Positions 51,901 to 64,000 of a DNA stretch of 64,000 nucleotides are shown here, piece after piece (position 1 is the first letter of the stretch; every line of letters starts with the position of its first letter). The notes under the pieces are model-generated. The model was not told the origin of the DNA. It saw nothing but the letters and a program-made list of their open reading frames with translations, and did no database searches. Location of the stretch: the NCBI RefSeq assembly GCF_023617305.1, contig NZ_CP081485.1:1602501-1666500 (forward strand). The letters are read 5' to 3'. A program made the position numbers and the translations under genes. The DNA is from Methanobrevibacter sp. TLL-48-HuF1 (GTDB lineage Archaea; Methanobacteriota; Methanobacteria; Methanobacteriales; Methanobacteriaceae).

Positions 51901-52390
51901 GGAAAATAATAAGCTTGAAACTCTTAAAAATATTGAAAAAAATGGTGAACGTTATGCGATTCCAACTAAATTAAAATGTCCTGTTTGTAAAACAGGTATA
52001 GTTTTGCTGGAATCTTTTTGGAATAATGGTAAACTTAATAGGGTCCTTAAATGTTCTCATAATATGGCACCTCCATTTAATCGATGTAATTGGAAAGGGG
52101 GTTATTATGGAAGTGAACTTAAGGATTTAGATGATATAAAACATTGTCCGAACTGTGATGGAATACTTATAAAACGTCGCAGACATAGTGACGGGCATCC
52201 ATTTTTAGGATGTACAAATTTTAAAGAAACAGGATGTAGGGGAAAAAGTAAACTTGAGTATATTGGTAAAAACTGTCCTAAGTGTAGTAAACCTCTTGTA
52301 AAAAGGCATAATGGTGAAGATAATAGTTTATTTATAGGGTGCAGTGGTTTTCCTAAATGTAGACACACAGAACCATTTGAAGAAAAATAG
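45935..52390 (+). CDS. Giant SF1 helicase with helical repeats, nuclease-like insert and zinc ribbons
   Basis: A 2151-residue protein. An N-terminal zinc ribbon (CPICSKVL, CPYCGT) is followed by about 1200 helical residues with tandem degenerate repeats of about 80 residues (about 560-1230). The helicase begins at LDSQQRNAIVV (about 1264): Walker A GAGSGKT (about 1285), VDEYQDT (about 1706), GDDWQSIYSF (about 1734), TVHQSKGLE (about 1897), YVALTRTKN (about 1951), all as in UvrD/HelD helicases. Inside domain 1B is a nuclease-like block: EELYIANFLF (about 1435), PDFYL (about 1512) and YIEHFG (about 1523). Three topoisomerase-type zinc ribbons end the protein (from about 2015, 2070, 2112). DNA repair or defence is inferred; the architecture is not one I can name. 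GAGGGAT precedes the ATG. Confidence 0.88.
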   Translation: MVMECPICSKVLNNEEICPYCGTNINEDIFVDFTSFQKLKNSFSGTFGKGLSKSDKKDLNEFLLNNESKIADFISKYQSSFENLVLDIPAIKEENKSIYEMICKLTDYFEEKKFNLSINQRKSCYTFKRIYDELADIIPKKNNEYCINTFDSIKLNLEKLNDFFSVSIPNERISKDKLSYKNQFKDNYDLIKPIKDYALNNSDVFNEFQEEIISNFISNFDNFNQNVDDLNNNYDMDQKLNLIIKLSSEISRSNNLDELLKEKENYKGLYNLAIEMLDDNESFYYLKNKIELNRNNLHNFKKAYKKLNSKIKLLRSENWIKDNFNILESIKNYETKFPKEFIDNFKFKELCSDFKMVLVNVDCILNNDINISNQYKNLLNDFIKYYMKFPYIVEESNCYFKINSKTANFNNIKHFKSEILHKFENNLSFKYDCIKNDYELLDNKLDDAIYVDDNWSNLVYFNGLKKSSSIKITDKKSFEKKYADLNEKVINVQEFITDDNKIDIDDFIFNFSHIAEYIDEINFHYELNSYLIKINKIEQVCELDDLVNQLLEFKEAYIYSKDAIANFSKWLSKKNEEILIDFIDYYDSLDAKIQEKRKEQIKKWLNDNRSDFVRFNALRDSEITGHLDADVIREDYKQLYGVCLDLNWDLLDIDDFKLVNEFKSNYEGIDAIVSYLNNRFDIKDFLGSVSGFVLGSSVDVLEKQKEDFKVFFDKCDSFVSRVSDDLLESEKVKINEFKDVYSSIDGKIYKIKVHNWLDFNKNKLADFNNEMSEEISAFILDDDVEDLKKQTEGLYNKIVEFRDNCPFLSQDEVVSSFVYNFENLDDIIADKNCKFRIKQILNEVNKRDFENGSPEFLEKQKELFSKYYVISKRIIDSFDDKITDSQKDEFLKFIEEYGNLDNEICNLRIASFFNKHLKEINEFILFTKGTKKYEISDRNRDDCKKGVNYLYDILLKIRDVFNQNPNIKQNRKNLTLEFIEIYENFENIVQRINYQTWFSNNLNDINNFIGIKSKTITSYIFEEEKDTLKASEDCYNKLNEIVDFHNNVFPSNLDLDIICEFIEDYDNYDDIITRLNVEFFFKDNYEIILWGASLNNVNPFYFIKNEEKERYKISIQKIYSNLTKVKQYCVKKHIFSDDKLDLMEDVIRNYENIDDLVIRWNVSYYLNAVVKKFAKIGEYAPDNYFSHNWKEKLLLWHKNAIPKVKKFKEDYAEYISSEDEKFFEKFYNKPQTFEMDTKQANELYINQELNDNSDLFDDLDGKSLDSQQRNAIVVDEDAVRVIAGAGSGKTFTIQGKVRYLTEKRDVDPSEILAISFSNASVNDLEERIAEPIDIKTFHKVGKDILTQYNQYSRQDTSALKRIIKRYLTKKALKSEDISKKLIEFFSFYINVPPSEEDIKYEGDLLDWQEGVDFSTLKRRFKNKQRETLNNEIVRSYEELYIANFLFIHGINYTYEKIYSYPNKNFEREFNKFKEFLFSFDEEIPDELKNDIAKGLLNLTDICEEYEIKDYFPDFYLNDYNIYIEHFGLNRNCENHLIGGKSSEEYVKEMEWKRKVHKKYETTLIETFSYYQSENRLLTRLAEKLQAQGVEFNEIDYRQVYAILLENKTIKEWEDFIVLLKTFIELFKGNNYDGDKFKEFYEYVDGFKSSFSKDRTIAFLKIVEEIYNDYEAYLLKIKKIDFNDMINKASDCIVKNGLNLPYKYIIVDEYQDTSFTRYNLLRNICDNIGAKIMVVGDDWQSIYSFSGCDVNIFTKFDNFFDVCETRYVEKTYRNSQQLIDASSNFVMKNPDQSRKELKSSKSLECPIKIVKFDNDFDEILKFELIIKNIINQSKFENKKILILGRNNKDIFNLLKNFNVKNEDGKRKFEILGDEDKLRRDKFVKIVYRYNPDVNIEYRTVHQSKGLECDNVILINLKNWKAGFPNKMVDDPVLNFVKRNGDSFSYAEERRLFYVALTRTKNNVYLLAPYFKSSVFIQELENDVNVELLNLENNKLETLKNIEKNGERYAIPTKLKCPVCKTGIVLLESFWNNGKLNRVLKCSHNMAPPFNRCNWKGGYYGSELKDLDDIKHCPNCDGILIKRRRHSDGHPFLGCTNFKETGCRGKSKLEYIGKNCPKCSKPLVKRHNGEDNSLFIGCSGFPKCRHTEPFEEK

Positions 52391-52398
52391 ATGGGAAG

Positions 52399-54183
52399 CT
52401 AAAATGCCCCTCCACCTCCTCCACCGGAACCTCCACCAATGTCACCAAAGCCGGAGCTGTCAGTATTTGCATTTGCTGTTTGTATTCCTGTATCTATTGC
52501 AGTATGCATCATGTAATATCCTGTTCCATAATAATAGTATGAATCAAGATAATCGTCATCAATGTTTCCTTCACCAACATGGAGTTTCATGGATTCGTAA
52601 ACCTTATCAGCTACTCCAAGAGCTGTTGCATATACAAGGTATTGATTCCATATAACTATTGATTCCGGAGGGTGTTCTTTCATTAAACTATTGTCGCTTA
52701 AAAACTTCTTAAAGTTTTTCCACTTTAGCATATATACTCTGCCTTCTTTTGTCCATTGCCCAAAGATATCTTCAGGCAATATGTAAATCACAAATCCAGA
52801 AATGAATAAAAATACTGATCCTATAAGTCCGATTATTCCTCCTGTTGTATTTAAACCAGTTACCATATAGAATAATGCAGCAAACAGAACTCCAATAATT
52901 ATGCAGGCTATTGAATAGTAAAGAGCTATTTTATTTCCTTTATTATTAAAGAATTGCTTTAATCTGGATTTTGATAAATGTTCGTAGACAACATCATTTT
53001 TCCAGGATTTGATTCTGTTATTGAACCATTCTGCATTATGTTCATCAGATAAGTAATCTTTGACATTACTTAAATCCAAGAGATTATCTTTAGCTATTGT
53101 TTTGAAGATATCGAAAACATCTTTTTCATCTAATGTTAAGCTGCTGTAGTTTGTTTCATCTAATTCTATGATTAGATGTTTTTCTTCATTTGATTTAATT
53201 TTAAATATTTTACGATTGATTAAATCCATTATTGTAGCTTCAAATCCTTTTAAATCTGGAGTTCCAATATTGTCTCTTTTTTGGATTAATGCATTAACTA
53301 CAGCTGGAGGGTCGTTACTTGGAAGATCCCTTTCATAAATTCCTTCATAATTCACTTTAGGTTCCACGCCATATTTGCGGTAAATAAAAAATGGAATTAC
53401 TGGACTTATAATAAACAGTATTCCGATAAGTGATCCGATATTATCCCACATCTTTTCATTTGCCTGATAATCATTGTAGCGTTGTTCTATTTCTTTTTTA
53501 GCCGTTTTATCAATATGGATTGCATTTGGTGAGTTTTCAAAGTCGTTTTCAGGCATTAAAACTTCAATTTCGTAAAAGTTTCCGGAATCTATGTAATTGC
53601 TGGTTGAAGTTATTGTATTTCCATCTAATGAGCTGGTTTTGGTATATTTTGTAGGATTTAACCAGTACTCATTACCGTTATCATTAGGTAAATGTATAGT
53701 TGTTATTAATTCATCAACTCCAACTGCCCATTGGTCTCCCCAAAGCTGATATTGCAGGGATGCAGTATCCTGATAAACAGTCACTACATTTTTCATATCA
53801 TAGCTGATATGGACTTTAACATTTGTATCACTTATTGGCTGGGTTTTGGCAGCATCTGAATATAAATAAATTTTTATATGCTGAGTTCCATCTTCCTGAT
53901 GTTGCTCTACTTTTGTATAGGCACCTTCTGCTGATACATGAATATTTGAAATACTTTCTCCATCTTTTAGGGGAATATCTCTATAAACTCCATTAAATGT
54001 TCCGTCAAAGGAATAGTCAAAGGTTTCATTTATATGAAGCATTCCATTTGTATCAACTACAATGTCTACAAGTGCCTGTGTAATGGAATAGCTTCTGTCA
54101 TCGTCATCTGCATAAACGCAGGAGACTGTTGATGTTATTAAAAAAAGTAGAAGGAAGATGGTTATTATCTTTTTATTAACCAT
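52399..54183 (-). CDS. DUF2207 membrane protein with glycine-rich tail
   Basis: A 594-residue protein. A signal peptide (KKIITIFLLLFLITSTVS) leads into an extracytoplasmic DUF2207 domain (about 30-230) with INETFDYSFDGTFNGVYRDIPL. One membrane helix near 240-260, a cytoplasmic portion with two further helices (about 415-465), and a C-terminus GGGSGGGGGGAF complete it. DUF2207 proteins often pair with LemA, as here, where lemA is 14 bases upstream. Function is unknown; envelope maintenance is a guess. Confidence 0.87.
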   Translation of the reverse strand: MVNKKIITIFLLLFLITSTVSCVYADDDDRSYSITQALVDIVVDTNGMLHINETFDYSFDGTFNGVYRDIPLKDGESISNIHVSAEGAYTKVEQHQEDGTQHIKIYLYSDAAKTQPISDTNVKVHISYDMKNVVTVYQDTASLQYQLWGDQWAVGVDELITTIHLPNDNGNEYWLNPTKYTKTSSLDGNTITSTSNYIDSGNFYEIEVLMPENDFENSPNAIHIDKTAKKEIEQRYNDYQANEKMWDNIGSLIGILFIISPVIPFFIYRKYGVEPKVNYEGIYERDLPSNDPPAVVNALIQKRDNIGTPDLKGFEATIMDLINRKIFKIKSNEEKHLIIELDETNYSSLTLDEKDVFDIFKTIAKDNLLDLSNVKDYLSDEHNAEWFNNRIKSWKNDVVYEHLSKSRLKQFFNNKGNKIALYYSIACIIIGVLFAALFYMVTGLNTTGGIIGLIGSVFLFISGFVIYILPEDIFGQWTKEGRVYMLKWKNFKKFLSDNSLMKEHPPESIVIWNQYLVYATALGVADKVYESMKLHVGEGNIDDDYLDSYYYYGTGYYMMHTAIDTGIQTANANTDSSGFGDIGGGSGGGGGGAF

Positions 54184-54197
54184 GTATTTAATCTCCC

Positions 54198-54761
54198 TTA
54201 AAATTGCACTTTAGGTGCTTCTCTCTCACCACTGGCTATTTCAAAAAAGTCAGCTTCTTTAAAATTAAACATTCCTGCAATAATATTGCTTGGAAACTGT
54301 TCGCATTTGTTATTGTACATTAAAACAGCATCATTATAGAATTGTCTTGAGTAAGAGATTTTATCTTCAGTTTCTGTTATCTCTGATTGTAATTCTTTGA
54401 AATTCTGATCAGCTTTTAATTCAGGATAATTTTCAGCAATAGCGAATAATGATGTTAATGCACCTGTTAAAGCATTGTTAGCTTCACTAACTTCTTTAAC
54501 GCTGCTGGCATTCATCAAACCGCTTCTTGCTTTGGTTACATTTTCAAATACTCCTTTTTCATGACTTGCATAACCTTTAACAGTTTCAACAAGATTTGGT
54601 ATTAAGTCATTTCTCCTTTTGAGCTGAACATCAATTTGAGAATAACTGTTTTTAACTCTGTTTCTTGCATTAACAAGGCCATTATATCCACTAATAAGAT
54701 ATAACACAATAGCAAGTATGATTATTATAATTACTACTAAAATAATCATGGTTGTATCCAT
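54198..54761 (-). CDS. lemA: LemA family protein
   Basis: A 187-residue protein with one N-terminal membrane helix ([19 protein letters not shown]) and a helical-bundle domain: [45 protein letters not shown] and [17 protein letters not shown]. LemA proteins are common but without firm function. GGAG-type ribosome binding site upstream; first gene of an operon with the DUF2207 gene. Confidence 0.9.
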
Positions 54762-54841
54762 ATTTTTTGCTCCTTTTTTATTAATTTATATATTGATTTA
54801 AGTTTTATTAATATGTTGTTAATGGATTGTATTATTTGTTA

Positions 54842-54860
54842 GACTCTGTTGAAATCCTAT
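54842..54860 (+). repeat. Left terminal inverted repeat of IS5-like element
   Basis: Perfect 19-bp inverted match to 56011-56029. It contains the transposase stop codon on the minus strand (54857-54859). Confidence 0.85.
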
Positions 54861-55677
54861 TTTTCTATTTTGATTGATTGAAGAATATTGTAAATTGTTG
54901 TTTTGAGTCTTGTTTCTTTGTTTTGTAGTCTTGTACTTTTACTTTTGTTGTTTCCGTTTAATTTTCTTTTTATAACACTAAATACGCTTTCTACATTGTT
55001 TCTTAGTGAGTATATTTCTTTGTTGAATGTTTTTTGGCTTAATCGTCTGTACCAACCGTGTCTGAAGTTGGATTTGAGTGGTATTTGGTCGGATGCTTTT
55101 ATTTCTTTGTTTATGCATTCCCTTATTTTTTCTGTGTCATATGCTTTGTCTGCTATTACATATTCCGGTTTATGTTTTTTTAAACTTCTAATGGATGCTA
55201 TTGCAAAGGTTGTATCGTGTTTAGGTCCTCTTGCTGCTTGTGAATACAATATTAATCTTGAATCAACATCGATTGCAATGTGTGATTTGGTGTAAGTGTT
55301 TTCGTTCGTTATTGCGTATTTTTGCGTAATAATTTGTCTGCATTGTCGCTAGTGAATCCAGTACCATCAAGAGCCACATATTTAACTTTAATTTCCAAAT
55401 TATTAAGTATTAATGTTGTTATTTTTTCAAACATGTTTGTAGGCATTCTTTTAAAGAATTTCTGCAATGTTGATGGATCCAGAGCATTTTTAATACTTAA
55501 ATAACTCCTTAATCTATCTGAAAACTCCAAATATTCACTTATTTGACGATAAGTTAATTTTAAATAAATTTTTAACACCAAAATAGTCAAAAGTGCAGGT
55601 TGAGAATATAATTGCTTCGAATAACGACTGGAATACTTATTTAAAGATAATTTAGCATAAACTATAGGTGTATTCAA
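54857..55677 (-). pseudogene. IS5-like DDE transposase broken by frameshifts
   Basis: Two fragments form one transposase. The upstream part (55677 to 55309) starts MNTPIVYAKLSLNKYSS and includes the first catalytic Asp region VALDGTGF. The downstream part (to 54857) has IADKAYDTEKIR with the second Asp and NNVESVFSVIKRK with the Glu. Between them the bases read YYAKIRNNERKH in a third frame. An extra base near 55332 and another near 55295 would explain both shifts. Removing both gives one protein of about 270 residues. The product is unlikely to be active as it stands. Confidence 0.8.
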
Positions 55678-56010
55678 TTAATTTAATCAATTCATTGGTC
55701 TTATAACAGTTTTTACTCTTATTTTTAATTTTTTTGAAAAATTTTCGTGTACTGCTTTTTGAACCCAAAATCCAAAAGAGTTTCATACTTTAAACGACTA
55801 ATTAATGATTGGAGAATGTTTATTTTCGTTGTTCATATATATAAATATTCTCCATTATACTATATAAAACTTATTAGAAACTATTTTTAAATATCGCTGA
55901 TTAATTTAAAATTATACTAAATTTAACAAATAAATAACAAGATATAATTAAAATAACTAAAAATTCTTCAAAAAATCATAGTCGATGTGCAACTTCAATT
56001 GTAAAAAATT
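55678..56010. other. Non-coding interior of IS5-like element
   Basis: No reading frame is seen in these 333 bases between the transposase start and the right inverted end. An imperfect inverted repeat, GGAGAATGTTTA (55811-55822) against TAAATATTCTCC (55842-55853), has 11 of 12 pairs and a 19-base loop. It could be a terminator that shields the transposase or a control site. Confidence 0.5.
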
Positions 56011-56029
56011 ATAGGATTTCAACAGAGTC
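56011..56029 (-). repeat. Right terminal inverted repeat of IS5-like element
   Basis: Perfect inverted partner of 54842-54860. Confidence 0.85.
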
Positions 56030-56146
56030 GAAAAATCAAAAAATCAAACCAAAAATAATATAACAAGCTTATTAGATAAAAAAATAATTAAAAAATTTCA
56101 TCAAAAAAATCTTAAGTTTCTAGGAATGTCGTATTATGAAAAATTT

Positions 56147-56156
56147 TATATACTAT
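56147..56156 (+). promoter_or_regulatory. TATA box of poly-G adhesin gene
   Basis: TTTATATACT lies about 50 bases before the ATG at 56202, giving an expected leader of about 20 bases. Confidence 0.45.
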
Positions 56157-56201: not shown

Positions 56202-59200
56202 ATGAATAAATTTAAAATAGGTATTATTAGTTTATTTTTCTTATTAATAAGTATGAGTTTTGTTAATGCAGAACATTCTAATATGGCTAATGGTACTGTT
56301 ATTGTAGATGATAACAATTTTGATTCTTATTTTGATAATGATGGTTGTTTAATTAATAATTCAATAGATACGATTTATTTTGGAGATATGTCTAATAAAA
56401 GTATTGTTATTGATAAATCTTTGAGTATTTATTCTTTAAATTCTTCAACAACAATTTTAAATTCATGTTTTAAAATTACTGAAGATGGTTCTAATTCTAT
56501 TTTAAAAAATTTAAATTTTGTTGTTAATTATTCTAAAGGTGATTTTTTACCTCCAATTTACATAGATCAATCATCAAATAATGTAATTGCTGAAAATAAT
56601 ATTAATATTAATTTTAATAATGCTAGTTATACAAATGTAGTTGGAATTTATAATTTTGGTGAATGTATAAATAATATTATTTCTTATAATAAAATTGCTA
56701 TAACTTATTCTAGTCCTGGTAATCATTATGTTTATGGTATAGAATTTACAGGGTCTTCCATGGGGGGGGGCAAAAAGTTATGGTAATTCTAAATTTAATA
56801 AAATCTGTGGAAATACAATAAAAATTAATTCTTACAATTATGTATCTGGAATTTATATTTCTTGTGGTTCTGATGCTATTGTAAGTAATAATGATATTAA
56901 TTTATTTTCAAAAAATTTTGCATATGGTATTGTTGCAGAGTATTCTGAATTACTTGGTTCAATAAATAATTGTAGCAATATAACTATTAGTGCCAATACT
57001 ATTGATGCTACTTCGAGTATGGTTTATGGTATTGAATTATTTAATATTTTTAATGTTAATATTGCAAGTAATATTATAACTACTTTATCTAATGCTAGTT
57101 ATGGTATTGTAGGATATGGTTGTTATAATCATAATGTCATATGGAATGATATTTCAATTAATGGTAGTGATATTTCAATTATCACTAATAATTTTGATGT
57201 TATAGGTACTGGACATGCAGGTATTTGTTATATAAAAAATTCCAATAATTTAACTATTTCTAATAATAATATTTTATCTTATTATGTTCTTGGTGGAGAT
57301 TATGCTATTCGTTTTGATGATAGTAGTTTAACAAGGATATATGTAACATATAATAATTTAACTTCTAATAAATTTACATATATTGGTGATAATGCTGTTA
57401 ATGGTAAAGTTAGATTAGTTAATAATAAAGCATATGTTGTAGATAATATTACTTTTAATGCTATTAATTATACTAGTGTTAATATTTATGTTAATTTAAA
57501 TGGTAGTGATAGTAATGGTAATGGTTCTTTTAAGAAACCATTTTTAACTATTAATAAAGCATTAATGTATTTAAAAAATTTAAAAATTTCTAATAAAACT
57601 GCAAATATTAAAGGCATTATATATATTGGTGAAGGTACTTTTGATGGATTTAAATTAAATCTTAGGGATTTTGTAGTTGATTTTATAGGTTATAATACTA
57701 TTATTGATGGAAAATCTAATTGGTTTTTACAAACATCATCAAAGTCAATAATCAATATTAAAAATGTAACTTTTATTAATGGTGTTTTTAATCAAGACGA
57801 TGCCGGTTTATTTAATAATAAAGGGATATTGAATTTTTATGATTGTAAGTTTTATAATTCAAATTTGTTTGCTAAATCAGGAATTATTTATAATAATGGT
57901 GTGATGGAAGTAAATAATTGTATATTTGATAAATTAATTATATCAAATAAATCATCTATTATTTGTAATGTTGGTATCTTAAAACTTAAAAATAATTCTA
58001 TGAGTTTCCATGGTGGAGGTTATTCTATTTACAATAGTGGTAAAATAGATAATGTTGTATTAAATATATTTAAAGATAGTTCAATTGATGATGATAGAAT
58101 TATTAAATTAAATTCTCCATATATTGAACTAGTTGCTTATCTTCATGATGATAATGGTAATTGTATATCTGGAGGTATTGTTAAATTTTTCATAGAATCT
58201 AAAGAAATTTCATTAAACACAACTTTTAATCATGGAAAAGCATCTATATCTACTTTTGTTTCATCAATTAATGATTTTAGAGTTTCAGCATCTTATTTAA
58301 ATGCATATGCAAATATTGTTATTAATTACGGATATGTTGTCAGTAATTTATCTTCTAATGATGTTAAAATTTATGTTAATGAAAGTGCATTAATTGATGG
58401 TGATGGATCTATAAATAATCCTTATAATTCTATTAATAAACCACTATCTTTAATTAATTCTTCTATTGGGCATTGGAGTATTATTTTATTAGATGGTTAT
58501 TATCAAAATTCTTTGAATAGTTTTGATGCTAAGTATGGTGTAACTTTTGAAGGAATAGGGAATGTTTATATCTTGAATGATTGGGTGTTTAATACAACTT
58601 CAAATATTGAACTTAATAACTTGATATTTTATAAATCTTCTATTGTTAATTTTTATTCAAATATCACAATTAAAAAATGTTTGTTTACAAATTCATCTAA
58701 AACAGCTTTATATTCAAGCCAAGGGAATGTAAAAATTTCAGATTCTAATTTTACATTTAATAATATTCATGATTATCATTATGTTTTTAAAACAGGACAT
58801 GTTGTTGTAGATAAAGGAGGAGCGATATTCAATACAGGTGGATTTTTAATGATTTTTGATTCAATGTTTATGGGCAACGAAGCATGTCATGGTGGTGCCA
58901 TTTTTAACACATATGCTGATTTGCATATTTCTAGTTGTAAATTTATAGATAATCTTGCTTTTGGTGGATTTAATGATGATAGACTTTCTTATTCTGTAGG
59001 TGGTGCAATTTGCCAATTATTGGGTAATGAAATTATAGTTTCAGATACTATATTTTTTAATAATACTGCTAATGGTCAAGGTGGTGCATTTTATTATACT
59101 GGTAGCAATCTTCAATATATTTGGGGTGTTTTTAGTAATACTGGATTAGCTGATGATGGTGTTTTGAATGAGAATCTTCAAGATCTTTATTTCATTAACT

Positions 59201-60351
59201 GTAATTTTACAAATAATTTAGCTCCATTATCTGGAGGTGCTGTTTATATATTTTACAATTCTTTAACTAATTATATTAATTGTATTTTTTCACAGAACCT
59301 TGTTTATACTTATGATATTATTCAATTATTGGCGCAGGGGTCTATGGGTCGTAATTGGTTTTATCCCAATGAAGTAAGTTCACTTAGTTCAATCTCATTA
59401 CTGCCTATTAATAATGGTGGAGCTATTTATGATGATAATGTGATTATAATTGGCAGTACTTTTGAAGGTAATACTGCAGAATCTGGAGGATTACTTGTTG
59501 TTCCATCATTGCTATCTTCAGCAAAGGAGTTGAAATTATTAAATAAACATTATGTGGGAATTACTTTTCTTACATATCATAATAATAATGAAAGAATATA
59601 TGTTGAAGATTCTTCATTATTGACAAGTAGGGATTCTAAATTTATTGGAATTGGTAAATGGGTGGGAAAATATGATGGTCCATCTATTAGTAAGTATATT
59701 AAGGAGTATTATGATGCTCAAGGTTCTTATCCATCTTCTCCACCGGGGAACGGTAATGGTGGTTTTGGAACTGGTGGGAGTAGTGGTTATGCAAATGGTT
59801 CAAAACCTGGTACGGGAAGTGGTGGTCAATCTAATTTAAATATATTTGGATCTTTAACTTGGGGTCAAATTCTTAATTATTTGAACTCACAGGGGAGTAA
59901 TATTGCTATAAATAATGGGAATCATATTACTATTGAAGATATTATTAGTAAACTAAATCAAAATTCTAACAATCAAAATAATAACTCTCAAAGTAGTGAT
60001 TCAAGCGATTCTCATGATACAATTAAAATAAATGGGACTACTAATAAGGATTCTGATAATTCGGGAGGACATATAGTTAATGATGGTGTTGCCGTATCTG
60101 TAGGTGTTAGCTCTAATAGTTTAAATGGTGTTGTAAATGATGGGGATGAATTTTCTTCAAAAGATTCTTCAAGAGATAAAAGTTACTCATCATCTTCAGA
60201 TTCATCATCTGGGAGTCCATACAATTCTTATGAAATTTTAAAAGATGTGAATAAAGAAGTTATTCATCAGAATAATGAATATTTTATTCTCATTTTAATT
60301 ATTTTATTTATATTATTGATAATTGGATTTTATAAAAATAATAAAAGGTAG
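56202..60351 (+). CDS. Giant adhesin-like surface protein, frame interrupted at a G9 tract (probable phase-variable gene)
   Basis: The frame starts at ATG 56202 with a signal peptide (MNKFKIGIISLFFLLISMSF) and stops at 56786, 14 bases after a run of nine G (56762-56770). The +1 frame is open straight through the run and continues to 60351. With eight G the two join as one protein of about 1382 residues. The protein is a right-handed beta-helix adhesin: N/S/I-rich repeats, two YVN..GSD.NGNGS.K.PF.TI-type modules (near 57480 and 58375), an Ig-like domain (58111-58340), GGAIFNT repeats (58820-59080), a Gly/Ser linker (59735-59830), a Ser/Asp-rich stalk and a C-terminal membrane anchor (YFILILIILFILLIIGFY) with a basic tail. 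As sequenced the gene is OFF. Confidence 0.85.
56762..56770 (+). repeat. Homopolymeric G9 tract
   Basis: Nine G in a row inside an adhesin gene that is otherwise very AT-rich. The run lies exactly where the two halves of the gene change frame. Eight or eleven G would restore the frame. Confidence 0.9.
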
Positions 60352-60363
60352 GGGGTTTTTTAA

Positions 60364-63300
60364 TTGAAAAAATATTTAAAGTTATTTATATTAATAATAT
60401 TGTTTGTTTTATCAATTGGTTGTGTAAATGCATCAGATAACTTACTAAATGATATAAATGACACAATTTATGTTAGTGGGGATGGAAATGATTTAAATAA
60501 TGGTTTGACTCAGAATAGTTCTTTTAAAACAATAGATAAAGCATTAAATGTAGGGAATTCTGATAAAGTTATTTATATTGGTGAAGGGAATTACTCTGGG
60601 AAATTAAATACTAATTTATCCATTAATTCAAGTAATATTTATTTGATTGGTGAAAAAGTTAATAAAACCATTATTGATGGGGATAATTTAAATAGACTTT
60701 TGGTAATTTCTTCTAACTCTAATGTTGTTTTAATTAATTTGACTTTTATTAATGGTCATGATTTATATAAAGGTGGAGCTATATTTAATTCAGGAAATTT
60801 GACATTAATTAATTGTACTTTTTTAAGTAATACAGTTTCTAATTCCTTTGTTTTTAAGAATTATGATATTGGTAATGAATGGGATTATGTTTATGGTGCT
60901 GCAATTTATAATGAAGGTTATTTAAATATTAAAAACTCCTATTTTGTTAATAATATATTAGGTAGTGCAAATCAGAAATTTGCTTTTGGAGGAGCTGTTG
61001 CGAGTTATGGTAAAATAATTATTGATAATTCTTTATTTGATAATAATGTTATTATCACTTATAAAAATTGGAATTATTCTAATCAGCATAGTTCTAAAAA
61101 TTATGTTAGTGATATTCAAGCATTTCAAAAAGGAGGGGCAATATTTTGTATAGCTAATTCTTCAATAATCAGTAATTCTGTTTTTAATTATAATAAATTA
61201 ATATTTTTTGAAAATTGTCCATCAAATCATACGATGTTTTTTGTATATTCTGAAGGAGGAGCAATTTATTTCAAAGGTAATAATTGGAGTTTTACCAATT
61301 GTTCTTTTTTAAATAATGCTGCGGATGTTGGAGGAGCAATTTATTTTGAAGGTAATAATACATTATTTGATTCATGTAATTTTGAGTTTAATTCTGCTTA
61401 TTTAGGATGTGCAATTCTTTCATGGGATTTTAATCATAATAAAATGTCATCTAAAGTTCATTATATTGATGGGTTAAATAAATATTATAATGTATTTATT
61501 TTAAATTCTAGTTTTAGAAATAATTATTTCACATGCAGTAAAAATGATAATATTGATGAAATTTTTTTCCGTATGGGTTATGGTGCAGGAGCATGTTATT
61601 TAAAGTTAAATAATATTATGATTAATAATTCAATTTTTGAGAGTAATGGGATGATTTATAGTAAACAATTTGCACATCTATATCAAGAGTGTAATGGGGG
61701 AGCTTTATATCTTTTTGGAAATAATTCTAAAATATCTAATTCTTTATTTAAAGATAATTATGCAGAAATGGGTGGGGCTATATCAAGTTCAGGTTTTAAC
61801 AATTGCATAAGTAATTCTTCATTTTTAAATAATTTTGCTCTTTCAAAAGATGGAGGTGCTATTTGTAATTCTCTTGGAAATATTCATATTAATAATTCTA
61901 ATTTTACCTCTAACTTTGCTTTAAAAAGGGGAGGTGGAGTTTATTCAGCTTCATTTTGGAATAATGGTGATGGAAATCAGGTTTATTCAACATATGAAAA
62001 TTCTAAATTTATAAATAATGTTGTTAATGGTTATGGGGGCGCTATTGATGATAGTAGTAGCCATATTAATTATAAAAATTTAGAATTTGTAGGAAATGTT
62101 GCCTATTGGGGTGGTGCTGTTTATTCATCGGGTAATGGTAATATTTTCAATGAATCTAAGTTTATAAATAATATAGCTAAAAATGATGATTATTCTAATG
62201 GTGGTGCAATATTTAGCCAAGGTTCCGATTGTGAGTATCTTTCTTGCGTATTTTTGAATAATTCTGCAAATTTAAATGGTGGAGCAATTTATAGTGCTGG
62301 AAACAATATTTATTGTGTTAATTCATTTTTTAATAATAATCATGCATTTAAAGGAGGAGCAATTTGGTTATCTGGAAGTGGAGGCAAAATTCAAAATAAT
62401 ACATTTAATTCAAATGGTGCGATATATGGGGGAGCAATTTATACTATCACTAATGAGTTGATTGTTGATTATAATCTATTTAAACAAGACAATGCTAATA
62501 TTTCTGGAGGAGCTATTTATAATGGGGGTATTAATTTAACATTATATTCAAATAGTATGCTTGATTGTGTTGCTAGATTAAATGGTTATGGTTATGGCCA
62601 TTATATATTCACAACATCTACTATTTCCTATTTGGTTGTTTCATTTTTAAATGATACTTTTGTTTCTTCAGATAGTAATAAATTCTATGTTAATGTAACA
62701 GACAATTTTGGAAACCCTATTACTGGCGGAAATGTCACTTTTGTTTTATATAATGAGTTATCTGGTGAAACAATTGATTTAGGAATTGGTGAAGTTATTG
62801 AGGGTTTTGCTTCAGTTGATTATTCTAAAAAATTAGATTATGGGGAATATTATTTAATGGGTAGTTATTCTTATGCAGCAAATCCTATTCTATTAAATAA
62901 AGGAAATTTATTATCTGTAAAATTATCTAAATTAAATATTTATTATTATAATAATCCAAATAATTTTAGTTTAGGCAATAATTTTACATTTTATTTAACT
63001 TTGGTGGATTTAAATGGTGATTTTATTCCAAATGCAGAAATTAAGGTTTATGAAAATGGAGTTTATTCTCATTCTTTAATCACGGATAATTCTGGTTTTG
63101 TTAATTCATCATTTGATAATTTAAACACTTTAGGCACTCATTATTTTAATTTTGTTTATAATGGTGATTTAATTCATTCCCGTACATTTAATAATTTAAG
63201 TATTACAATTTATCCGGATGATAATGACAAATTTAAAGATGTTATTTTCTTTTCTTATTATCCTATTGTTATTGCATCTGTTGGTGATCAGATTCCGTTT

Positions 63301-64000
63301 GAGTTTTTCATAGGGGTTGATGGAAATAAACCATTATTTAATATATCTACTTTAAGATACTTTTCAGTATATAAAAACGGTGAATTAATAAAATGTGAAA
63401 ATTATAGGGATTATTTGGGAAAATGTGTTAGTTCTGGTAAATTGTATAATTATAAATCAGTTAATAATTTAACATTTATTGATTTTTTAGTTTCTGATTA
63501 CGGTGAATTTTGTATGCCGATTATTGAAAATGAATCTGGTGTTTTTGTTTATACTATTTTATTCAATGGGGGATTAATAAAACAATATAATGCTTCTAAA
63601 GAATATTTGCCTCTTGTTAATGATGAAGATTATTATTATAATTCTGCTAATGTTTCTGTGATTGTTATTATAAATCAAAAAGGAGTTAATTTAAATACTA
63701 AAATCACTACTGGAAGTTCAATTACTATTAATGAAGTTCAGAACCTTAATTTTACATCTAATTTATCTTATCTTAATGGGACTGGTTTGGATAATAAAAA
63801 AATTTTAGTTTATAATAATGGAAATTTTGTAGGTTCATTTGTAACTGATAATTTGGGTGTTGGATCATTTAAGCTTGATGATACATTGAATAAAGGAGAA
63901 CATATATTTGAATTAGTTTTTGCAGGCGATAGCGAGAATTCTAGTTGTTATACTTTTTTGACAGTGAATGTTGTTGATAATCCTGATAAAATCGATACTT
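60364..64000 (+). CDS. Second giant adhesin-like protein, beta-helix with GGAI repeats, 3' end cut by window
   Basis: The frame is open from TTG 60364 to the window end, at least 1212 codons. AGGGGGT lies seven bases before the TTG. A signal peptide (KKYLKLFILIILFVLSIG) is followed by a YVSGDGNDLNNG module and a long parallel beta-helix with many GGAI(F/Y) and F.NN motifs to about 62560, a pattern like chlamydial polymorphic membrane proteins. From about 62640 Ig-like repeats take over (VTDNFGNPITGGNVTF, LVDLNGDFIPNAEIKV, NNKKILVYNNGNFVGSF). It starts 12 bases after the poly-G adhesin and probably shares its transcript. Confidence 0.87.
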   Translation, partial: MKKYLKLFILIILFVLSIGCVNASDNLLNDINDTIYVSGDGNDLNNGLTQNSSFKTIDKALNVGNSDKVIYIGEGNYSGKLNTNLSINSSNIYLIGEKVNKTIIDGDNLNRLLVISSNSNVVLINLTFINGHDLYKGGAIFNSGNLTLINCTFLSNTVSNSFVFKNYDIGNEWDYVYGAAIYNEGYLNIKNSYFVNNILGSANQKFAFGGAVASYGKIIIDNSLFDNNVIITYKNWNYSNQHSSKNYVSDIQAFQKGGAIFCIANSSIISNSVFNYNKLIFFENCPSNHTMFFVYSEGGAIYFKGNNWSFTNCSFLNNAADVGGAIYFEGNNTLFDSCNFEFNSAYLGCAILSWDFNHNKMSSKVHYIDGLNKYYNVFILNSSFRNNYFTCSKNDNIDEIFFRMGYGAGACYLKLNNIMINNSIFESNGMIYSKQFAHLYQECNGGALYLFGNNSKISNSLFKDNYAEMGGAISSSGFNNCISNSSFLNNFALSKDGGAICNSLGNIHINNSNFTSNFALKRGGGVYSASFWNNGDGNQVYSTYENSKFINNVVNGYGGAIDDSSSHINYKNLEFVGNVAYWGGAVYSSGNGNIFNESKFINNIAKNDDYSNGGAIFSQGSDCEYLSCVFLNNSANLNGGAIYSAGNNIYCVNSFFNNNHAFKGGAIWLSGSGGKIQNNTFNSNGAIYGGAIYTITNELIVDYNLFKQDNANISGGAIYNGGINLTLYSNSMLDCVARLNGYGYGHYIFTTSTISYLVVSFLNDTFVSSDSNKFYVNVTDNFGNPITGGNVTFVLYNELSGETIDLGIGEVIEGFASVDYSKKLDYGEYYLMGSYSYAANPILLNKGNLLSVKLSKLNIYYYNNPNNFSLGNNFTFYLTLVDLNGDFIPNAEIKVYENGVYSHSLITDNSGFVNSSFDNLNTLGTHYFNFVYNGDLIHSRTFNNLSITIYPDDNDKFKDVIFFSYYPIVIASVGDQIPFEFFIGVDGNKPLFNISTLRYFSVYKNGELIKCENYRDYLGKCVSSGKLYNYKSVNNLTFIDFLVSDYGEFCMPIIENESGVFVYTILFNGGLIKQYNASKEYLPLVNDEDYYYNSANVSVIVIINQKGVNLNTKITTGSSITINEVQNLNFTSNLSYLNGTGLDNKKILVYNNGNFVGSFVTDNLGVGSFKLDDTLNKGEHIFELVFAGDSENSSCYTFLTVNVVDNPDKIDT

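What the first reader, a model, noticed from the sequence alone, without database searches (positions are those of the whole stretch)
56762..56770. G9 tract splits a 1380-residue adhesin gene: probable phase-variation switch in a methanogen
Seen directly: nine consecutive G in an otherwise very AT-rich gene, with the upstream frame ending 14 bases later and the +1 frame open on both sides for over 3500 bases. Eight or eleven G would restore one adhesin from signal peptide to membrane anchor. Poly-G slippage is the classic ON/OFF mechanism of bacterial contingency genes such as those of Campylobacter; I know of no well-described archaeal example. The target is a surface adhesin of a gut-type archaeon, where antigen switching makes sense. 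The downstream adhesin may be affected by polarity.
Basis: partly seen in the sequence, partly recalled or inferred. Interest (0 to 1): 0.85.

Follow-up and report, generated by a model that had tools for sequence, protein, structure and literature searches.

The report
Poly-G switch in a methanogen adhesin
A run of nine Gs breaks the reading frame of a large surface-adhesin gene in a gut methanogen, and related methanogens carry similar G runs in or just before adhesin, DNA-methylase and sugar-transferase genes, which suggests that these archaea use the on/off slippage switches so far known from bacteria, although no switching has been observed yet.

Summary
The G9 tract (56762-56770) is real in the sequence and is the only thing breaking one adhesin gene of 1382 codons. 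It is the only G run of six or more in the window. Intact paralogs in the same genome align in one frame straight across the break, so this is one split gene. Strain or read data for this tract were not available, so switching itself is not shown. The genus context supports the switch reading. Extrapolated run lengths predict 0.1-0.3 tracts of nine or more Gs per genome; this genome has four. In the genus, 14 of 23 other coding tracts fall in restriction-modification, adhesin or sugar-transfer genes, most frame-broken at the tract. Many intergenic tracts lie upstream of signal-peptide adhesins. Two intergenic tracts shared with Methanobrevibacter smithii differ in length (8 vs 12, 11 vs 8) in flanks at least 92% identical. 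In a second genus a poly-G promoter module recurs before paralogous adhesins with G10-G15. Best reading: a slipped-strand translational contingency locus, deposited OFF, within a wider set of archaeal poly-G loci. I found no archaeal precedent in the papers searched. Rivals: a fixed pseudogene, a one-base tract-length error, or slippage during transcription.

The parts
56762..56770 (+). G9 homopolymer: putative slippage tract that sets the frame
   Evidence: only G/C run of six or more in the window
56202..56786 (+). Upstream open frame (194 codons plus stop): signal peptide and first part of the beta-helix; stop codon at 56784-56786
   Evidence: stop read
56202..56270 (+). Probable signal peptide (residues 1-23, MNKFKIGIISLFFLLISMSFVNA)
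   Evidence: read from the translation; cleavage site inferred, no predictor run
56743..60351 (+). Downstream open frame (+1 relative to the upstream one): rest of the adhesin; Chlam_PMP repeats, weak beta-helix match
   Evidence: intact paralogs align colinearly across the junction
60283..60333 (+). Hydrophobic C-terminal helix followed by basic residues: probable membrane anchor
   Evidence: inferred from sequence
56144..56152 (+). TTTTATATA, possible TATA box of the adhesin promoter about 50 bases before the ATG
   Evidence: sequence; resemblance only, not tested
60364..64000 (+). Second adhesin, starting (TTG) 13 bases after the stop of the first; runs beyond the window
54842..56048 (-). 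Insertion sequence with a split transposase, at the left border of the adhesin cluster
   Evidence: many similar copies in genome G005; the same transposase break in another copy of this genome

Best explanation
The G9 tract is a contingency (phase-variation) tract. During replication it gains or loses Gs by slipped-strand mispairing. With 8 or 11 Gs a single 1382-residue surface adhesin is made, from signal peptide to C-terminal anchor; with 9 or 10 Gs the full adhesin is not made (with 9, translation stops 14 bases after the tract and only a secreted fragment of about 194 residues could result). The deposited sequence is an OFF state. The locus belongs to a wider set of poly-G loci in Methanobacteriaceae that act either in coding frames (adhesins, restriction-modification genes, sugar transferases) or upstream of adhesin and transferase genes. 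Shown: the tract, the single break, one ancestral gene, the enrichment, and length differences of orthologous intergenic tracts between species. Inferred: slippage in living cells, reversibility, surface switching.
For: One gene with one break at the tract; intact paralogs align in one frame across it. Tracts in excess: four of nine or more Gs in this genome against 0.1-0.3 expected. 14 of 23 other coding tracts of the genus in restriction-modification, adhesin and sugar-transfer genes, 11 of them broken at the tract and 3 in frame. Intergenic tracts upstream of adhesins. Orthologous tracts of different length in this genome and M. smithii. Repeated poly-G promoter module with G10-G15 in genus g8. 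No canonical MutS1 found: the only MutS_V match is a MutS-like protein far below the MutS1 cutoff.
Against: No length variation of this tract was observed, because no strain or read data were available. Tract length 9 is at the short end for known hypermutable tracts. Many tracts in the family are intergenic without an obvious contingency gene, so some poly-G may be neutral. Some draft-genome tracts are artefacts. The background share of contingency genes was assumed, not measured.
Confidence: 0.7

Rival explanations
1. Fixed pseudogene: the frame was broken once in the tract and the adhesin is decaying, without switching.
For: The gene is out of frame in the only sequence at hand; the cluster is lineage-specific and bordered by insertion sequences.
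Against: No second lesion in about 4.1 kb; related adhesins of the genome lie in intact frames; the break is in the kind of tract that recurs in the same gene classes elsewhere.
Confidence: 0.13
2. Assembly or sequencing error: the true tract has 8 Gs and the gene is intact and constant.
For: Homopolymer length is the classic error of long-read assemblies, and draft genomes of the family do contain poly-G artefacts.
Against: The genome is one contig and the window shows no other unexplained frame break; the transposase break recurs in another copy. Even a G8 tract here would be a candidate switch, and G8 tracts occur at an orthologous length-variable site.
Confidence: 0.12
3. Transcriptional slippage or programmed frameshifting at the tract makes some full-length adhesin from the G9 gene, so the tract tunes expression without genetic switching.
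For: Long G runs followed by A runs (GGGGGGGGGCAAAAAG) are slippery for polymerases and ribosomes (general knowledge).
Against: It does not explain tract-length differences between orthologous loci or tracts in promoter regions; tracts are also found in frame (L103, L109). It does not exclude genetic switching.
Confidence: 0.05

Closest known systems
Intragenic poly-G/C phase-variable genes of Campylobacter (PMC8355987, PMC4965091) and Neisseria autotransporters NalP and MspA (PMC3723659)
   Same: A G homopolymer inside the reading frame of a secreted surface protein, whose length decides between full-length and truncated product; relatives use the same tract type in other surface and modification genes.
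   Different: Archaeal gene and cell surface; length variation among cells has not been shown here; the window tract is shorter (9) than several of the family's tracts.
Phase-variable restriction-modification systems (phasevarions), for example in Helicobacter pylori (PMC4209511)
   Same: Relatives carry G9-G12 tracts that break HsdS, HsdM and DNA methylase genes.
   Different: Only an analogy for the wider set; the window gene itself is an adhesin, and no methylation data exist here.
Promoter-tract phase variation, for example NadA of Neisseria meningitidis (PMC2791445)
   Same: The intergenic poly-G tracts of this family sit upstream of adhesin starts in repeated promoter modules with varying tract length.
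   Different: A homopolymer tract and archaeal promoters; the effect on transcription is untested; the window's own tract is coding, not promoter.

Membership tests
Simple-sequence-repeat (poly-G) contingency locus, translational type | Homopolymeric G/C tract longer than chance within the reading frame | tested here: met
   G9, no other run of six or more in the window; expected 0.06-0.17 such tracts per Mb
Simple-sequence-repeat (poly-G) contingency locus, translational type | Otherwise intact gene on both sides, restored by a change of tract length | tested here: met
Simple-sequence-repeat (poly-G) contingency locus, translational type | Gene of a surface, modification or defence class | tested here: met
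   signal peptide, Chlam_PMP / beta-helix repeats, adhesin paralogs
Simple-sequence-repeat (poly-G) contingency locus, translational type | Tract length varies among cells or strains at high frequency and reversibly | not testable with these tools
   one genome per species; no other copy found. Only indirect: two orthologous intergenic tracts differ between species
Simple-sequence-repeat (poly-G) contingency locus, translational type | Expression follows tract length | not testable with these tools
   needs RNA or protein data
Methanobrevibacter adhesin-like proteins | Signal peptide, right-handed beta-helix / Chlamydia PMP-type repeats, large size, genomic paralogs | tested here: met
   adhesive function itself not tested

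The most novel reading that the evidence does not exclude
Methanobacteriaceae possess a true archaeal phasome: many poly-G contingency loci, in coding frames of adhesins, restriction-modification genes and sugar transferases and in repeated adhesin promoter modules, that switch surface proteins and DNA methylation stochastically in gut methanogens.
Probability: 0.6. Interest if true: 0.88.

Novelty: new variant of a known kind. Interest (0 to 1): 0.77.

Why it matters
Slippage-driven phase variation is documented for many bacteria; a 2025 review (PMC11868660) leaves its distribution in archaea to future work. If gut methanogens switch adhesins and DNA methylases in this way, it would help explain their highly variable adhesin repertoires, give them a bet-hedging answer to host immunity and archaeal viruses, and let known bacterial theory be tested in another domain of life. 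It also means that some adhesin and methylase 'pseudogenes' in methanogen genomes may be switched-off genes.

Tried and rejected
DNA ortholog of the tract region in 67 genus genomes: none except the genome itself. Named relatives by protein: nothing. Strain-level pattern scans of viral and genome collections: nothing; close records may be left out there. Chance run of Gs: rejected by the run-length distribution. Two neighbouring genes instead of one split gene: rejected by colinear intact paralogs. Structure of the joined N-terminal 462 residues from a single sequence: mean pLDDT 43, too poor to use beyond weak support for a loop at residues 184-198; no fold search was made. Very high tract counts of some draft genomes (G118, G137) were not used because they include clear artefacts. 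Tracts near contig ends are in excess (16 of 61 within 500 bases against 4.5 expected), which would fit mixed tract lengths but also sequencing artefacts, so no weight is put on it.

Full report
WHAT IS THERE. Nine Gs lie at 56762-56770, the only G/C run of six or more in the 64 kb window. Upstream, a frame opens at ATG 56202 with a signal peptide and ends at TAA 56784-56786, 14 bases after the tract; downstream, the +1 frame runs from 56743 to 60351 and ends in a hydrophobic helix. With 8 or 11 Gs the two join into 1382 codons. The off-frame stop density makes a chance open frame of 1190 codons negligible (log10 P about -35), and both parts have the low third-position GC of coding frames here. 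Pfam finds Chlam_PMP repeats and a weak right-handed beta-helix match in the downstream part, no family in the N-terminal 186 residues, and Chlam_PMP repeats in the next gene.

ONE GENE, NOT TWO. At the junction the window protein reads YVYGIEFTGSSMGGAKSYGNSKFNKICGN and L235 reads YLYGMGVIGSETGSGSSKYSSNNKFVDN, so the tract encodes glycines in a stretch that paralogs fill with ordinary codons. Other paralog matches lie in open frames of 1082-3047 residues without stops.

SETTING. The genome is one contig of 1,951,395 bases. Window 52001-54841 is 94% identical to genome G006, whose contig of 1,853,160 bases has the size of M. smithii ATCC 35061 (from memory); 'M. smithii' below means G006. The organism is therefore probably the sister species of M. 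smithii (Methanobrevibacter intestini lineage). A complete genome of that lineage was built from Illumina and Nanopore reads (PMC9431525), but I could not establish that it is this record. In G006 the LemA-type gene is followed directly by exopolyphosphatase-like and polyphosphate-kinase-like ORFs (named from the sequence); here an insertion sequence and three adhesins follow, then more transposases. The ORF map shows no other unexplained frame break in the window; the transposase break at 55309 recurs at the same residue in a second copy.

IS THE TRACT EXCEPTIONAL? Run lengths in 633 kb of genus DNA fall off roughly geometrically (702, 123, 14, 4 for lengths 4-7) and predict 0.06-0.17 tracts of nine or more Gs per Mb. 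This genome has four (and two of eight): 359275 G11, 786565 G9, 830177 G10 and the window's G9. The window tract is the only one clearly inside a gene; 786565 lies directly upstream of a start codon, and the G8 at 284105 lies 198 bases upstream of a 1969-residue adhesin.

THE GENUS. 37 of 67 species genomes carry G9 or longer. I fetched most of the tracts and read the frames on both sides. Of 23 coding tracts besides the window's, 14 fall in restriction-modification genes (HsdS in L055 and L100, HsdM in L075, N6/N4 methylases in L062 and L073, C5 methylase in L068, D12 methylase in L070), adhesins (L057, L146, L103), glycosyltransferases (L109 twice, L110) and a hexapeptide transferase (L074), with Pfam support for the enzyme classes and repeat, DUF11 or Ig-like matches for the adhesins. 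Eleven of the 14 are broken exactly at the tract and three are in frame, compatible with the two-thirds OFF expected at random. Against an assumed 10% of genes in such classes this has P about 3e-9, against 20% about 2e-5; the background was not measured. Intergenic tracts often lie about 75-350 bases upstream of adhesins (L054, L061, L077, L078, L149, L151, L152, L154) or glycosyltransferases (L110, L111, L156). In L149, L151 and L154 the C9 stands close to a TTTTTTATA-like box.

LENGTH VARIATION. Two intergenic tracts of this genome have an ortholog in M. smithii and both differ in length: G8 against G12 upstream of the same adhesin with near-identical flanks, and G11 against G8 in a 92% identical stretch. 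A third site has G9 here and an interrupted run in M. smithii. These are differences between species, not switching within a clone.

THE FAMILY. G10 or longer tracts are far commoner in several other genera. In the closed genome G079 and the draft G078 (genus g8) most lie 130-280 bases upstream of paralogous adhesins, in a conserved module with Gn followed by (T/C)(A/G)GCTATTGTTT; the module has G11 in G079 and G10-G15 in G078. In genus g12 (closed genome G117) tracts are numerous but mostly intergenic, some upstream of adhesins. Some draft genomes contain obvious poly-G artefacts, so closed genomes and tracts in meaningful contexts carry the weight.

MECHANISM. Slipped-strand mispairing is the simplest process that explains a single break at the tract, the recurrence in the same gene classes, the mixture of in-frame and out-of-frame tracts and the length differences. 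The only MutS-domain hit of the genome is a MutS-like helix-hairpin-helix protein far below MutS1 cutoffs, which would leave slippage errors less repaired; MutL and NucS were not tested. In the OFF state a secreted fragment without anchor could be made; in the ON state a long surface adhesin. Whether the next adhesin, 13 bases downstream, is affected was not tested.

COMPARISON AND NOVELTY. The architecture matches bacterial translational poly-G contingency genes (PMC8355987, PMC3723659) and, in relatives, phase-variable methylases (PMC4209511) and promoter-tract switches (PMC2791445). It works like them; full membership needs the untested variability. Searches of the held open-access library found no report of such loci in archaea. 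A survey of homopolymers in 99 genomes included 18 archaea, centres on poly-A and poly-T, and its main text names neither Methanobrevibacter nor Methanosphaera (PMC2831843); a 2025 review leaves archaea to the future (PMC11868660). Subscription journals and preprints were not searched.

Noticed in passing
L163-L170 (G079) and L171-L179, L238-L257 (G078): A conserved promoter-like module (poly-G, then GCTATTGTTT, then AGTGAGTGTTCAT nearer the start) precedes many paralogous adhesins; tract length is G11 in G079 and G10-G15 in G078.
   Followed up: partly
L055 (3699-3708), L100 (4109-4118), L075, L062, L068, L070, L073: G9-G12 tracts break HsdS, HsdM and DNA methylase genes in other species of the genus: candidate archaeal phasevarions; in HsdS the break lies between the two specificity halves.
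   Followed up: partly
L017 6106-6113 and L058 4675-4686: Orthologous intergenic tract upstream of the same adhesin: G8 in this genome, G12 in M. smithii (G006), with near-identical flanks.
   Followed up: yes
L018 7276-7286 and L223 489-496: Second orthologous tract: G11 here, G8 in M. smithii, 194 bases upstream of a MarR-type regulator gene.
   Followed up: partly
window 54842-56048 and L227 16439-16807: Insertion sequence whose transposase is split at the same residue (LLRKNTQ) in two copies; either programmed frameshifting or an element-wide lesion.
   Followed up: no
window 54842 onward through L227 to about 11634: Cluster of three adhesins with insertion sequences that M. smithii (G006) lacks at this site.
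   Followed up: partly
L315 97-2046 (G000:C1 about 634-636 kb): MutS-like protein with a helix-hairpin-helix N-terminus, the only MutS domain V match in the genome.
   Followed up: partly
G118:C1, G118:C41, G137 (L271, L281, L274): Runs of 52-53 Gs at contig ends and G19-G22 clusters with Ns are probably assembly or sequencing artefacts in draft genomes and inflate tract counts.
   Followed up: yes
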